From the NCBI RefSeq assembly GCF_017940815.1, contig NZ_JAGAXX010000053.1:1-55565 (forward strand): DNA of 55,565 nt. The letters run 5' to 3'. The stretch comes from Methanobrevibacter sp. Its GTDB lineage: Archaea > Methanobacteriota > Methanobacteria > Methanobacteriales > Methanobacteriaceae. The notes beneath the pieces are model-generated. The model was not told where the DNA came from. It did no database searches and saw only the letters and a program-made list of their open reading frames with translations. This document shows positions 22,479 through 50,788 of this stretch, piece after piece (the stretch's first letter is position 1; the number at the start of each line of letters is the position of its first letter). Position numbers and translations under genes: made by a program.

Positions 22479-24500
22479 TTATTTTACAGTTATTTTAACT
22501 TTTTTGCCAGCAACTTTATAACATGCATTGCCTGCAAATTTAACAATCCCCCTGAATTTGCCTTTTTTGGCCAATTTCTTTATTTTAAAGATGGTCTTGC
22601 CCTTGCTGTTTGTTTTTGCAATATATTTTTTTCCATTAACTTTTAAGGTTAATTTTACTTTCTTAACTGCCTTACCCCTGCTGTTTTTCAATGAAATTTT
22701 GTATTTTTTAATTTTTTTAGATTTTTTAAATGTTTTCTTTTTAGCAACAATTTTTGTTTTTTCCTTATTGATTTTTATTTTAGCAGTTTTACCGGCAATA
22801 TTGTAGTTTGCACCAGTTACTTTAATAACAAGATTCTTTTTACCTGCTTTTGCAGTTTTAAGCATTTTTGAAGTTAATGAAAGCGTAGCAACACCTTTTG
22901 AATTTGTAGTGACTGAACGTATAGCTTTGCCGTTTAGGACGAATGTCACTTTAACACCAGAAACCCATTTATTGGTAGAGTCCCTAACAATTACGGAATA
23001 TTTGCCACCATAGTTAATTACATATGCCTTATTGCTTGCAGAAACTACCAAATTCTGTTTTTTAACATTGAAATTTACACTAACATTTGTTTCAGTATAA
23101 TTTTCATGACCATTGAATGCCACACTACAGGAGTATGGTCCCACATCAAGATTAGGAATTTCAATTGTTGCATTTCCATTAACGACATCATAAGTGTATC
23201 TCTTATTGCCGATTACAACTGAAACGTTACCTCCATTAACTGCAACATCATTATATGAAACATTGACCATAATTTTCACAGTATTGCCATAAATAACATC
23301 AGAAACATTAATGATTGTTAAACGAGCAACATAGAAAACCGTTGCATTTCCTTTTAAGCAGATATCATGAACTCCTGAAGTTGCAAAATTATCCTTGAAT
23401 GTGGAATTATCGATTAACAGCTTTCCACTGGATAAAATCGCACCTCCATCATTAGCCTTATTGCCTTCAAATACTGATTTTTCCATTGCCCCGTTTTGAT
23501 TAAAATAGATTGCACCACCATAAAGTGAAGCTGAATTATTAGTGAAAATACAGTCAGCAAACTCTCCAAAACTGAATATGTAAATTGCACCGCCAGAATA
23601 TCCCTCAGCAGAATTATTTGTTAAATTGCAATAGTTCATACATACATCGTCATTAGCGTAAATTGCCCCTCCACTAAATGTTGCAACATTATCCTTAAAA
23701 AGGGAATGGATTACAGTTCCATTTTTCCAGAATTCTATTGCACCACCTGTTCTTGCCCTATTGGCTACGAAGTTACATCCATCAACTTCAGAGGCGCCCT
23801 TAACATATAATGATCCGCCACTTTGTGCAGAATTACCTTTAAAATTGGAATTTTTAATTTTTCCATCCGTCCAAAAGTTGATTGCCCCACCTTCGGAGCT
23901 TGCACTATTATTTGTGAAGTTACAATCAGATACTAACCCCTCTCCGTTAAAATAGATTGCACCACCATAGCTGCCAGCAGTGTTGTTTTTGAAATAGGAA
24001 TTGGAGACCGTTCCTCCTTGGGCGAAGTAAAGTGCTCCTGCGCTATATCCTGCAGTGTTGTTTAAAAATGTTGAATTCAATATGTTTAAACCCTGAGTGG
24101 AGTATATTGCTCCGCCATTTTCACTGGAATAGGCATTGATGAACTTGATGTTTTTTAGAGTAACATTGCTAGAGGTTATATTGAATATCCGGGCTTGTCC
24201 TGCCCCATCAATTGTGTGTCCGCAACCATCGATTAATATATTGTCACTGGTGATTCTAATTCCATCTTTGTAATCTGAATCACTGTAATTGTATACATAA
24301 TCCTTAGTTAAGGTTAAATTCCCATAAGTAGGAATTTTACTGATATCATCATTCAAACCTGTGAAATTTCCAATTTCAGCAGTGTTTTGGTCTTCTTGTA
24401 AGATTGTATGTTCTGTTTGATTGGTGTCCACAGCACCCACACAGGCTAAACTGGTTAGGACAATCATGAGGAATATTGCAAAAACAGATTTAAATTTAAT
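22479..24500 (-). CDS. Adhesin-like protein with ten-coil beta-helix, probable ATT start codon
   Basis: About 673 residues. The first ATG (24467) lies inside the signal peptide. The coding frame continues upstream as KFKSVFAIFL, giving a full signal peptide (basic n-region, hydrophobic core, ACVGA cleavage site). No ATG, GTG or TTG occurs before the in-frame stop at 24522-24524, but an ATT at 24500 lies six bases after GGAGGA, so I place the start there. Residues about 95-345 form ten right-handed beta-helix coils (GGAIY, AGALY, GGAIN, GGSLY and similar, every 23 residues or so). Then come an Ig-like domain with NxxVNVSY-type strands, a Big-1-like domain (SGVKVTFVLNGKAI) and the Lys-rich C-terminal module shared with the giant adhesin. 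It is probably wall-attached. Confidence 0.8.
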   Translation of the reverse strand: MKFKSVFAIFLMIVLTSLACVGAVDTNQTEHTILQEDQNTAEIGNFTGLNDDISKIPTYGNLTLTKDYVYNYSDSDYKDGIRITSDNILIDGCGHTIDGAGQARIFNITSSNVTLKNIKFINAYSSENGGAIYSTQGLNILNSTFLNNTAGYSAGALYFAQGGTVSNSYFKNNTAGSYGGAIYFNGEGLVSDCNFTNNSASSEGGAINFWTDGKIKNSNFKGNSAQSGGSLYVKGASEVDGCNFVANRARTGGAIEFWKNGTVIHSLFKDNVATFSGGAIYANDDVCMNYCNLTNNSAEGYSGGAIYIFSFGEFADCIFTNNSASLYGGAIYFNQNGAMEKSVFEGNKANDGGAILSSGKLLIDNSTFKDNFATSGVHDICLKGNATVFYVARLTIINVSDVIYGNTVKIMVNVSYNDVAVNGGNVSVVIGNKRYTYDVVNGNATIEIPNLDVGPYSCSVAFNGHENYTETNVSVNFNVKKQNLVVSASNKAYVINYGGKYSVIVRDSTNKWVSGVKVTFVLNGKAIRSVTTNSKGVATLSLTSKMLKTAKAGKKNLVIKVTGANYNIAGKTAKIKINKEKTKIVAKKKTFKKSKKIKKYKISLKNSRGKAVKKVKLTLKVNGKKYIAKTNSKGKTIFKIKKLAKKGKFRGIVKFAGNACYKVAGKKVKITVK
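23390..24140 (-). repeat. Ten beta-helix coil repeats in the second adhesin
   Basis: About ten consecutive units of roughly 69-75 bp, each encoding GGAIYF or a variant followed by a strand and an N[NS]xA turn (for example FTNNSAS, FKNNTAG). They are diverged at DNA level and are protein repeats, not a CRISPR array. Confidence 0.65.
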
Positions 24501-24512
24501 ATAAATTCCTCC
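24498..24512 (-). promoter_or_regulatory. Ribosome binding site and putative ATT start of the second adhesin
   Basis: The minus strand reads GGAGGAATTTATATT. The GGAGGA core (24512-24507) is six bases from the in-frame ATT (24500-24498). The same 15 bases occur at 50774-50788 in front of the MetX-like hydrolase, also followed by coding sequence without an ATG. Confidence 0.6.
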
Positions 24513-38307: not shown

Positions 38308-38315
38308 AAGGTGAT
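38308..38315 (+). promoter_or_regulatory. Ribosome binding site before an uncertain start (GTG or ATT)
   Basis: AAGGTGAT. The only canonical start, GTG 38311, lies inside this site. Four bases after it is an in-frame ATT (38320), the same spacing seen at other genes here (for example AGGTGAT-AAAT-ATG at 17944). Confidence 0.5.
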
Positions 38316-38904
38316 TTCAATTAACTCTCAGGAAATACGATACTTTTACAGGAATATAGTAAAAACAGGCAACGTATACAGAGTTAAATATAACAATAAG
38401 GACTATGGAGAGTTCAGGAAATTATCTGACGCATTATACGAAAGAGATGCACTATTTTTTTGTAACTTTGACTATGACCTGCTTGTTGAATGCGATTTGG
38501 AAAACAAGTATGAGAACATGGAATTGCCACCATTTCCCGAAAAAAGACCGAAAGGCAGAATCAAGGGAACCAAGGTAAACAAGACCGAAAGGGAAGGAGA
38601 AATCCTTTTTGACCATAAAAAGAGAAAATTCTTTATCAAGAAGGGAGAAGACATCATAGGCGATTACGACACCATGACCGAAGCGTTTTACTATAAGAAG
38701 CTTTTAATGGACAACCATTGGGACATGAGCGTCTTAAGAACACACATCACAGAAAGAATTGAAGTCAATATAACCATTGACCCGACAAAAAAGTACAAGG
38801 TCAAGCTCAACTTCTGTCCTAAGTGTAAAAGCAGGTTAAAAATCGGTGAGGAAGAATGCCCTTCATGTGGTATTAATATTAAAGAATATTTGTATAATAA
38901 TTAA
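38311..38904 (+). CDS. Zinc-ribbon protein of unknown function
   Basis: 197 residues if started at GTG 38311, or 194 if at the ATT 38320. The first two-thirds contain two similar basic modules (VYRVKYNNKDYGEFRKLSDA and KFFIKKGEDIIGDYDTMTEA) each with a strand-turn-strand-helix look, which suggests a duplicated domain. The C-terminus carries a zinc ribbon with CPKCKSRL and CPSCGINI. The gene is rich in lysine and tyrosine, and nucleic acid binding is plausible but unproven. It is convergent with carB; its stop is 18 bases from the carB stop. Confidence 0.75.
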   Translation: MISINSQEIRYFYRNIVKTGNVYRVKYNNKDYGEFRKLSDALYERDALFFCNFDYDLLVECDLENKYENMELPPFPEKRPKGRIKGTKVNKTEREGEILFDHKKRKFFIKKGEDIIGDYDTMTEAFYYKKLLMDNHWDMSVLRTHITERIEVNITIDPTKKYKVKLNFCPKCKSRLKIGEEECPSCGINIKEYLYNN

Positions 38905-48392: not shown

Positions 48393-48416
48393 CTAGATTA
48401 CTAGCTACTCTTTTTT
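48390..48416 (+). terminator. Hairpin terminator overlapping the nadA stop codon
   Basis: Seven-base stem TAGCTAG / CTAGCTA with an ATTA loop (48390-48407), followed by CTC and six T. The first TAG of the stem is the nadA stop. Confidence 0.75.
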
Positions 48417-49409
48417 ATTTTTTAAACTATCCATAAACAATTTCAAATCATCTTCAATTATTGAACAATCATCATAGTCCACACGGTCCTCTTTTGAATC
48501 AAAAATGACGACAGTTGCATTTTCTATCATGTTTTCCAACGGCAATACGTCAAATTCTGGAGTATAATACATATCATCGTCAGAACTAACGATTAACATT
48601 TCCGCCTTGATGTTTTTTAATTTATCCTCCAAATTATACTCTAAAACTGCCTCATTACGCAAATTGAAATCATAGATGTCTGTGAACAAACCTTCATCAA
48701 CATAATCATCCATCAAAACATCAATCTCCTCATTGGACATGTTTTGAAATATTTTTTTGGAAAATTGATTTGAATATAACAATTTGTTTATGGAAACCAT
48801 GATTCTGGATAATGAATCACTGTATAAATCTGAATAAAAATCGTCATTGGATTCTATAATGCTTTCCATACATTTGGAGACAACATAACGGTACCCATTT
48901 GTTTTATATGAACTTCCAGCAACCATTATGAAATCCATTTCATCAGGATACTCACAAGCCCAAGTGTATGCCTCATATCCTCCGACACCACGACTTATAA
49001 TTCCAAAAACATGATCTATCCCAAATCTTTCTTTTAGAAACTGCCTTTTGAAATTAACACGATCTTTCATAGTGTATTTTGGAAAATTGTGCTTAAGATT
49101 TGTGGTGGAAGGTGAACATGAATCAGGGAATCCCAAGGAAGTGATTGAAATAAAATAGTACTCGTTAAAATCCAAAGGTTTGCCTTCGGCAGTGAGCTTA
49201 TATAAATCATCTAAAGAGGAATAGTTACCATTAAATGTATGGCAATAAACAATTACATTAGTGATTTTTCCATCGTCATCAAATTTTGGAGTTCCTTTTG
49301 CGGAATATTCAACGACAACATCATTTAAAACTCTTCCAGACTCAAATTCAAACTCATCCAATGAGCATTTATCGTATCCAATGAAAAAATCGTTTGTAAT
49401 TCCCATCAT
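48405..49409 (-). CDS. MetX-like alpha/beta hydrolase homologue lacking catalytic Ser and His
   Basis: 334 residues, clearly paralogous to the protein encoded at 49790 along its whole length (for example CSPSTTNLKHNFPKYT and FLKERFGIDHV). At the nucleophile elbow the paralogue has IGNSMGG, while this protein has ISRGVGG, so serine is replaced by glycine. At the histidine position the paralogue has DSDLGHLCF and this one DSKEDRVDY. The aspartate region is kept. It is therefore probably a pseudoenzyme. The frame is intact over 1 kb and the ATG follows AAGGTGTG, so it is maintained, not decaying. It is the third gene of an operon with the active-looking paralogue and a small acidic protein. Confidence 0.85.
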   Translation of the reverse strand: MMGITNDFFIGYDKCSLDEFEFESGRVLNDVVVEYSAKGTPKFDDDGKITNVIVYCHTFNGNYSSLDDLYKLTAEGKPLDFNEYYFISITSLGFPDSCSPSTTNLKHNFPKYTMKDRVNFKRQFLKERFGIDHVFGIISRGVGGYEAYTWACEYPDEMDFIMVAGSSYKTNGYRYVVSKCMESIIESNDDFYSDLYSDSLSRIMVSINKLLYSNQFSKKIFQNMSNEEIDVLMDDYVDEGLFTDIYDFNLRNEAVLEYNLEDKLKNIKAEMLIVSSDDDMYYTPEFDVLPLENMIENATVVIFDSKEDRVDYDDCSIIEDDLKLFMDSLKNKKE

Positions 49410-49789: not shown

Positions 49790-50776
49790 CTAAAAATCAT
49801 CCATAAACTCATTCAATTCATCTGAAATATCTTCAAGCACGTTAAAGCACAAATGACCCAAATCAGAATCCATTATGATTAATTGAGCATCACGTATCAT
49901 TTCAGACATTGGAATTCCGTCAAGTTCCGGAGGAAAATGAGGGTCCTGTTTGCAGGAAATGATTAAAACCTTAGATTTAATCTTGTCCAAGTCATCTTCA
50001 ACGTCATAATTCATGCAGGATTCGTTGCAATATTTCAAGTCATAAATGTCAATTTCCATCATTTCATTGCCAAAACTTTCCAATTCAGCCGCAAGTTCAT
50101 CATTTGACATGTCCCTTAATGCCTTTTTAGAAAGTCCAAAATTGAATTCCGCCAAGTTTGCCAATCTTAAAGTCCTGAGCAATGAATAGGTCATTTCTCC
50201 TTTTGCATAATCCGGATCGGAGGTGATTATTTCATCCACAAATTTTGAAAGGACATAATCATGGCCTGCAACCTTATAACTGCTTACACCGACAATTAAA
50301 AAATCAGAAAAATCCAGATAATGAATGGCTGAAGTCAAGCTGACAAAACCGCCCATGGAGTTTCCAATCATTCCCAAAACATGATCAATATTGAATTTTT
50401 CCTTAAGGAATTGCTTTTGGAAATTGACAACATCCAAAATGGAATATTTTGGAAATTTGCTGTTCAAGTTTGTAGTTGATGGAGAGCATGAGCCAGGAGA
50501 GCCCAATGCAGTAAGGGAAATGAAAAAATATTTGTTTTCATCAAAGGCATCTCCCTCGCCAACCAACGGAGCAATTTTCTTCATTGATGAATAATTTCCA
50601 AGAGATCCATGACAGTATAAAACCGCATTTTTTATTATGCCGTTTTCATCATAAGCAGGAGTTCCAAAAGTCATATACTCAACCTGAACCCCATTTAAGA
50701 CCTCACCATTTTCAAATTCAAATGAATCCATAGTGTAATATTCATTTTTTCCTTCAAAATACTCATCATCGTAAAT
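49790..50776 (-). CDS. MetX-like alpha/beta hydrolase with intact triad and probable ATT start
   Basis: 328 residues if begun at the ATT 50776. It resembles homoserine O-acetyltransferase-type hydrolases: VEYMTFGTPAYDENG, YCHGSLGNYSS, then the nucleophile elbow IGNSMGGFVS (about residue 140), an aspartate in SCKQDPHFPPELDG and the histidine in DSDLGHLCF. The first ATG (50731) has no ribosome binding site. Upstream codons read DEYFEGKNEYYTMDSFEFENG, which aligns with NDFFIGYDKCSLDEFEFESG of the paralogue (each shown in full at no more than 20 residues or so), so the protein begins before the ATG. The only SD-placed codon is ATT, after GGAGGAATTTAT. The true acyl substrate is unknown; a real methionine-pathway role is not supported by neighbours. 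Confidence 0.82.
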   Translation of the reverse strand: MYDDEYFEGKNEYYTMDSFEFENGEVLNGVQVEYMTFGTPAYDENGIIKNAVLYCHGSLGNYSSMKKIAPLVGEGDAFDENKYFFISLTALGSPGSCSPSTTNLNSKFPKYSILDVVNFQKQFLKEKFNIDHVLGMIGNSMGGFVSLTSAIHYLDFSDFLIVGVSSYKVAGHDYVLSKFVDEIITSDPDYAKGEMTYSLLRTLRLANLAEFNFGLSKKALRDMSNDELAAELESFGNEMMEIDIYDLKYCNESCMNYDVEDDLDKIKSKVLIISCKQDPHFPPELDGIPMSEMIRDAQLIIMDSDLGHLCFNVLEDISDELNEFMDDF

Positions 50777-50788
50777 ATAAATTCCTCC
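50774..50788 (-). promoter_or_regulatory. Ribosome binding site and putative ATT start of the MetX-like hydrolase
   Basis: The minus strand reads GGAGGAATTTATATT, identical over 15 bases to 24498-24512. The in-frame ATT is 50776-50774. No ATG, GTG or TTG lies between the upstream in-frame TAA and the ATG at 50731. Confidence 0.65.

What the first reader, a model, noticed from the sequence alone, without database searches (positions are those of the whole stretch)
24467..24512. Second adhesin also appears to start at ATT, with the same 15-base leader
Seen: the signal peptide is only complete if translation begins before ATG 24467. GGAGGAATTTATATT (15 bases) precedes it and is identical to the sequence before the hydrolase at 50.7 kb, although the genes are unrelated. 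In both, ATT is the SD-placed codon. Two independent cases with the same leader suggest either a deliberate start type or a shared recent mutation or transfer.
Basis: partly seen in the sequence, partly recalled or inferred. Interest (0 to 1): 0.68.

Follow-up and report, generated by a model that had tools for sequence, protein, structure and literature searches.

The report
AUU start codons in Methanobrevibacter
Several genes of these gut methane-producing archaea, including a surface adhesin and an enzyme gene, appear to begin with AUU, a start signal that gene-finding programs ignore, and related species have kept it, so it is a real, if rare, way of starting proteins rather than a sequencing slip.

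Summary
Confirmed and extended. GGAGGAATTTATATT occurs twice in the window and twice in its whole genome, each time ending in an in-frame ATT 7 nt after GGAGG. The ATT is best read as the translation start, not a mutation. For the hydrolase, 49 distinct Methanobrevibacter orthologues have ATT 42, ATC 1, ATG 5, GTG 1 in that column. In 11 ATT cases a stop codon sits directly before it, and the next canonical in-frame start is 15-35 codons downstream. A hydrogenase-maturation protease gene elsewhere has ATG 14, TTG 8, ATT 7, GTG 1 of 30: ATT swaps with ordinary starts. Four more adhesin-like genes and an FAD oxidoreductase in a 634-kb sample of this genome also look ATT-started. The identical 15-mer is a Shine-Dalgarno sequence plus an A/T-rich spacer; it is not a special element and not evidence of transfer. 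AUU starts are known (E. coli infC, pcnB; Borrelia pncA), so the kind is known. A multi-gene, genus-wide archaeal case, partly in adhesins, I did not find in print. No protein N-terminus was measured.

The parts
24498..24500 (-). ATT start codon of the adhesin-like protein
   Evidence: SD-placed (spacing 7), opens a complete signal peptide
24508..24512 (-). Shine-Dalgarno GGAGG of the adhesin gene
22479..24500 (-). adhesin-like protein, 673 aa from ATT; Chlam_PMP/POMP repeats and bacterial Ig-like domains
50774..50776 (-). ATT start codon of the alpha/beta hydrolase
   Evidence: start column in 49 distinct orthologues ATT42 ATC1 ATG5 GTG1
50784..50788 (-). Shine-Dalgarno GGAGG of the hydrolase gene
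49790..50776 (-). alpha/beta hydrolase (MetX-like superfamily), 328 aa from ATT
38320..38322 (+). third ATT start codon in the window, not reported in the finding
   Evidence: start column in 34 loci ATT31 ATC2 ATG1
38309..38315 (+). Shine-Dalgarno AGGTGAT; the GTG at 38311 that an ORF finder picks lies inside it
38320..38904 (+). 194-aa protein with a C-terminal zinc-ribbon-like motif (below Pfam cut-offs), found only in the same genus among the 61 genomes searched
48405..49409 (-). paralogous hydrolase that starts with ATG here; several relatives show SD-placed ATT codons at its start

Best explanation
ATT (AUU) at 24500(-), 50776(-) and 38320(+) is the translation start codon of these genes. 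The 30S subunit is placed by the Shine-Dalgarno sequence and the ordinary initiator tRNA-Met (CAU) reads AUU with a third-base mismatch, so the proteins begin with methionine and initiation is probably weaker than from AUG. The lineage tolerates and in some genes keeps AUU, probably because a modest translation rate is sufficient or favoured. Shown by sequence: position, SD, conservation, interchange with ATG/GTG/TTG. Inferred: Met at the N-terminus, low rate, selective reason.
For: Hydrolase: 49 distinct orthologues ATT42 ATC1 ATG5 GTG1. In 12 of 37 loci an in-frame stop is directly before codon 1 (11 of them ATT), 28 of 37 have no ATG/GTG/TTG upstream in frame, and the next canonical codon is at 15-35 in all 33 ATT/ATC loci. 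Codons 2-15 vary like coding sequence (pairwise differences at positions 1/2/3: 0.19/0.27/0.46) while upstream is flat (0.65/0.63/0.63). Third gene: ATT31 ATC2 ATG1 of 34, codons 2-13 vary 0.07/0.00/0.34. HycI-type protease: ATG14 TTG8 ATT7 GTG1 of 30 in one column. FAD oxidoreductase: ATT with GGAGG at spacing 7, a few codons before the GTGAGG motif. Adhesins: among 24 signal-peptide-like ORFs with an SD-placed site in 634 kb, ATG13 ATT5 TTG2 AAA2 AAT1 ATA1. Pattern with free third base: 16 of 16 matches, in 15 of 41 genomes, are ATT. One initiator-type tRNA-Met(CAU) and one tRNA-Ile(GAU) found.
Against: A crude codon census shows only weak ATT excess (G000 11 of 550 ATT versus 94 of 7458 other codons; out-of-frame ATT 9 of 743), so ATT starts are rare and cannot be called by SD alone. 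In the third gene, 29 of 34 loci have a canonical codon upstream in frame, usually GTG inside the SD or ATG at codon -3, so ATG there is a possible start in some species. The window's adhesin has no close full-length orthologue, so its ATT rests on SD, signal peptide and related adhesins. No protein data.
Confidence: 0.9

Rival explanations
1. The ATTs are recent point mutations (ATG to ATT) or assembly errors that cripple the genes.
For: The window comes from a draft assembly of 88 contigs.
Against: The same ATT is in dozens of separate assemblies, including single-contig genomes G014 and G029 (hydrolase) and G011, G034 (third gene and HycI), over divergence to about 67% identity, with frames intact.
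Confidence: 0.02
2. Translation starts at the first downstream ATG (adhesin 24467, hydrolase 50731) and the stretch from ATT is untranslated leader.
For: These are the starts an ATG/GTG/TTG gene finder gives.
Against: No SD at those ATGs; codons 2-15 of the hydrolase vary like coding sequence; ATG or GTG occurs at the ATT column in other species; the downstream M is L in many orthologues; the adhesin signal peptide would be truncated.
Confidence: 0.05
3. AUU is read by a dedicated or isoleucine-charged initiator tRNA (GAU), explaining ATT and ATC but almost no ATA.
For: Start columns hold ATT 80, ATC 3, ATA 0 among 113 distinct sequences of three families, whereas Ile codons in the hydrolase and third gene are 22% and 19% ATA (from the counts).
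Against: Only one tRNA-Ile(GAU) was found, without initiator features; one initiator-type CAU tRNA is present (initiator features recalled). ATG/GTG/TTG use the same column. Pattern hits include 3 ATA of 15.
Confidence: 0.03
4. The shared 15-base leader is a functional element moved between genes by recombination or transfer.
For: Two identical 15-mers 26 kb apart and none elsewhere in the genome.
Against: Close hydrolase orthologues have GGAGGAATTTAAATT and other adhesins GGAGGAATTTTTATT, so the identity is SD plus A/T-rich spacer; by eye no similarity extends beyond it.
Confidence: 0.04

Closest known systems
E. coli infC (IF3) and pcnB, AUU start codons
   Same: In-frame AUU starts translation; expression limited or regulated through AUU (PMC1780047 and PMC4245954, passages read).
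   Different: Bacterial; in infC the AUU regulates IF3 expression. Here unrelated genes in an archaeal genus; no evidence of autoregulation.
Borrelia burgdorferi PncA (BBE22), AUU start
   Same: AUU start missed by annotation, giving an N-terminally truncated database protein (PMC13398362, passages read).
   Different: Single bacterial gene, experimentally proven; ours is comparative only.
Kariarchaeal tubulin atubA, predicted ATT start
   Same: Archaeal, ATT inferred from N-terminal completeness and RBS distance (PMC13394414, passage read).
   Different: One gene in one Asgard genome; here several genes and tens of Methanobrevibacter genomes.
Methanobrevibacter adhesin-like proteins
   Same: Large surface proteins; the table in PMC2812497 (passages read) gives 105 for M. 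ruminantium M1.
   Different: No mention of ATT starts in the passages read.

Membership tests
AUU-initiated genes | in-frame AUU at SD distance | tested here: met
   GGAGG spacing 7 (two genes), AGGTGAT spacing 8 (third)
AUU-initiated genes | no usable canonical start upstream in frame | tested here: met
   hydrolase 28 of 37 loci, 12 with a stop directly before codon 1; third gene only 5 of 34, so weaker there
AUU-initiated genes | region between AUU and first canonical codon is coding | tested here: met
   third-position variation in codons 2-15 / 2-13
AUU-initiated genes | orthologues have ATG/GTG/TTG at the same column | tested here: met
AUU-initiated genes | protein N-terminus is Met encoded by AUU | not testable with these tools
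   needs N-terminal proteomics
AUU-initiated genes | lower expression than with AUG | not testable with these tools
   needs reporter assay
infC-type autoregulation | gene product discriminates against AUU | not tested
   gene products here (adhesin, hydrolase, zinc-ribbon-like protein) give no reason to expect it
Methanobrevibacter adhesin-like proteins | signal peptide, PMP-type repeats, Ig-like domains | tested here: met

The most novel reading that the evidence does not exclude
Methanobrevibacter has a standing class of AUU-started genes, enriched among surface adhesins and conserved over tens of species, in which AUU is a selected throttle on translation, possibly responsive to initiation-factor activity, and which gene callers limited to ATG/GTG/TTG truncate. 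Three genomes of another family of the order (f3) share an SD-plus-ATT start motif with a signal-peptide gene of a fourth (f2), so the class may be order-wide.
Probability: 0.3. Interest if true: 0.75.

Novelty: new variant of a known kind. Interest (0 to 1): 0.6.

Why it matters
If right, gene models that allow only ATG/GTG/TTG cut off N-termini, including signal peptides of adhesins, in common gut methanogens, so secreted proteins can be misfiled as cytosolic. It also gives a natural, many-species system for asking how an archaeal ribosome accepts AUU, why AUA is nearly absent, and whether AUU is selected to hold expression down.

Tried and rejected
Tried and weak: a genome-wide SD-placed codon census did not by itself separate ATT from other codons; a signal-peptide-anchored census did better and a GGAGG-ATN census gave the FAD oxidoreductase. 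Automated start-column choice on the syntenic region (18 genes of the window passed its filter) picked wrong columns for several genes (for example the hydrolase itself, and 43390, 50840, 52892), so I use it only for genes whose column is plain: 38923 ATG 21 of 21, 42121 ATG 20 of 21 (1 gap), 44923 TTG 18, ATG 2, GTG 1 of 21.

Rejected: sequencing error, private mutation, 15-mer as mobile element, second GAU initiator tRNA (reasons under rivals). For adhesins in relatives (20 loci that I chose for N-terminal matches) an SD-placed ATT was found by rule in 4 (L137, L138, L142, L150); in 6 more (L139, L140, L141, L143, L144, L147) an Ile stands at the expected place after an SD-like stretch but the rule did not fire and its codon was not printed there; 6 have ATG; 4 are unclear.

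Full report
What was checked. The 15-mer GGAGGAATTTATATT is present at 24498-24512 and 50774-50788, minus strand, and nowhere else in the 2.03-Mb genome. In both places GGAGG is 7 nt before an in-frame ATT, and the ATG that an ORF finder uses lies 11 or 15 codons further on without a Shine-Dalgarno match. The adhesin frame from ATT gives a full signal peptide. A third gene of the same build was found in the window at 38320(+).

What organism. The nearest named hydrolase orthologues are all labelled Methanobrevibacter, best 86%, so the window is taken to be from that genus; its adhesin carries PMP-type repeats and Ig-like domains.

Hydrolase. In 30 loci of the genus including the window the start column is ATT 25, ATC 1, ATG 4 (these are the loci cut out, which had matches in 50 of 61 genomes). 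A separate scan of named genomes gave 80 loci; of these the 36 with at least 67% identity plus the window give ATT 32, ATC 1, ATG 3, GTG 1. Merged and made distinct, at 59% identity or more: 49 sequences, ATT 42, ATC 1, ATG 5, GTG 1. The 44 remaining loci of the named scan, at 43-57% identity (other Methanobrevibacter clades, Methanosphaera and others), are not in this count; many have an ATG near the same place, and I saw no clear SD-placed ATT in that column there. Twelve of 37 loci have a stop codon directly before codon 1, so nothing upstream can be read. The next canonical in-frame codon is at 15-35 in every ATT/ATC locus. Codons 2-15 show coding-type variation, the upstream stretch does not. 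Orthologues in other families of the order appear to begin with ATG.

Third gene. Of 34 loci the column is ATT 31, ATC 2, ATG 1; SD GGTGAT or similar precedes it and codons 2-13 are strongly conserved as protein. Caveat: in 29 of 34 a GTG (inside the SD) or ATG lies a few codons upstream in frame, so in some species a canonical start is not excluded; the 5 without it have ATT 3, ATC 1, ATG 1.

Interchange. A HycI-type hydrogenase maturation protease, noticed in genome G034, has ATG 14, TTG 8, ATT 7, GTG 1 in one column over 30 loci; most, not all, have a GGTG-type SD. The fewest changes between ATH and NTG on quick protein trees are 4 (hydrolase), 1 (third gene) and 3 (HycI), so the switch has probably happened several times; many branches of the HycI tree are weakly supported.

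Adhesins and others in this genome. In 634 kb (window plus 40 stretches; 568 ORFs of 100 codons or more) I count eight genes that look ATT-started: the two of the finding, the third gene, adhesin-like genes in L067, L070, L202 and L208, and an FAD oxidoreductase in L205 (my name, from its N-terminal GxGxxG motif; no family search was run on it) whose motif starts a few residues after the ATT. Among signal-peptide-like ORFs with an SD-placed site, ATT takes 5 of 24 in G000, 2 of 12 in G029 (one clean), 2 of 13 in G034 (one clean), and 0 of 10 in the outgroup G043. With the third base left free, GGTGG-N4-ATN-TCN-ATN-AAAAA matched 16 times in 15 of 41 genomes, always ATT; GGAGG-N7-ATN-AA... matched 15 times in 12 of 41 genomes: ATT 10, ATG 2, ATA 3. 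Three of these ten are in another family of the order (G038, G040, G042), where GGAGGCGGTAAA-ATT equals the leader of a signal-peptide protein in G043.

Against. The plain census shows ATT only mildly above other codons, so most SD-ATT pairs in the genome are chance and each gene needs comparative support. Neighbouring conserved genes keep ATG or TTG, so this is gene-specific.

Decoding. There were 32 tRNA matches in the genome; ARAGORN was run on 27 of the 30 loci cut out and on all 30. They hold one initiator-type tRNA-Met(CAU), another CAU tRNA, one CAU tRNA with an intron, and a single tRNA-Ile(GAU); the initiator features (A1-U72, three G-C pairs in the anticodon stem) are recalled and judged by eye. 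So the ordinary initiator reading AUU is the simplest mechanism. ATA is absent from the three start columns (0 of 113) although 22% and 19% of Ile codons in the hydrolase and third gene are ATA; because the sequences are related this is suggestive, not a test.

The shared leader. Among 61 genomes GGAGGAATTTATAT occurs four times: twice here, once before an ATG start (G014), once inside a coding frame (G002). Close hydrolase orthologues have GGAGGAATTTAAATT and other adhesins GGAGGAATTTTTATT. The identity is an SD plus A/T-rich spacer; no recent copy or transfer is needed.

Literature. AUU starts are established for E. coli infC and pcnB (passages in PMC4245954, PMC1780047) and Borrelia PncA (PMC13398362, passages); one Asgard tubulin ATT is predicted (PMC13394414, passage). 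The listings of searches showed nothing on ATT starts in Methanobrevibacter. The SM9 and AbM4 genome papers used Glimmer with manual start checks and the passages read do not mention ATT; the M. ruminantium M1 passages do not either.

Verdict. Direct N-terminal evidence is missing.

Noticed in passing
window 38320-38904 (+): Zinc-ribbon-like protein, found only in this genus among 61 genomes, with a conserved ATT start; ORF finders pick a GTG inside its Shine-Dalgarno.
   Followed up: yes
L347-L376 (G034:C1:345708-346178 and orthologues): HycI-type hydrogenase maturation protease whose start codon switches between ATG, TTG, GTG and ATT among species.
   Followed up: yes
L205:6860-8167 (-), G000:C30: FAD-type oxidoreductase apparently started at ATT just before its dinucleotide-binding motif.
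   Followed up: partly
L217:8735-9274 (+), G043; pattern matches in G038, G040, G042: Signal-peptide protein with a C-terminal Cys/His-rich region outside the genus, also with GGAGG-N7-ATT at its start; the same leader occurs in three genomes of another family.
   Followed up: partly
L067, L070 and 14 pattern matches in other genomes: Nearly invariant leader and start GGTGGAAAAATTTC in front of adhesin-like genes here (two copies) and once per genome in 14 relatives, always ATT.
   Followed up: partly
window 48405-49409 (-) and L252, L255, L263, L384: Paralogous hydrolase next to the first, ATG-started here, with SD-placed ATT codons at the start in several relatives.
   Followed up: partly
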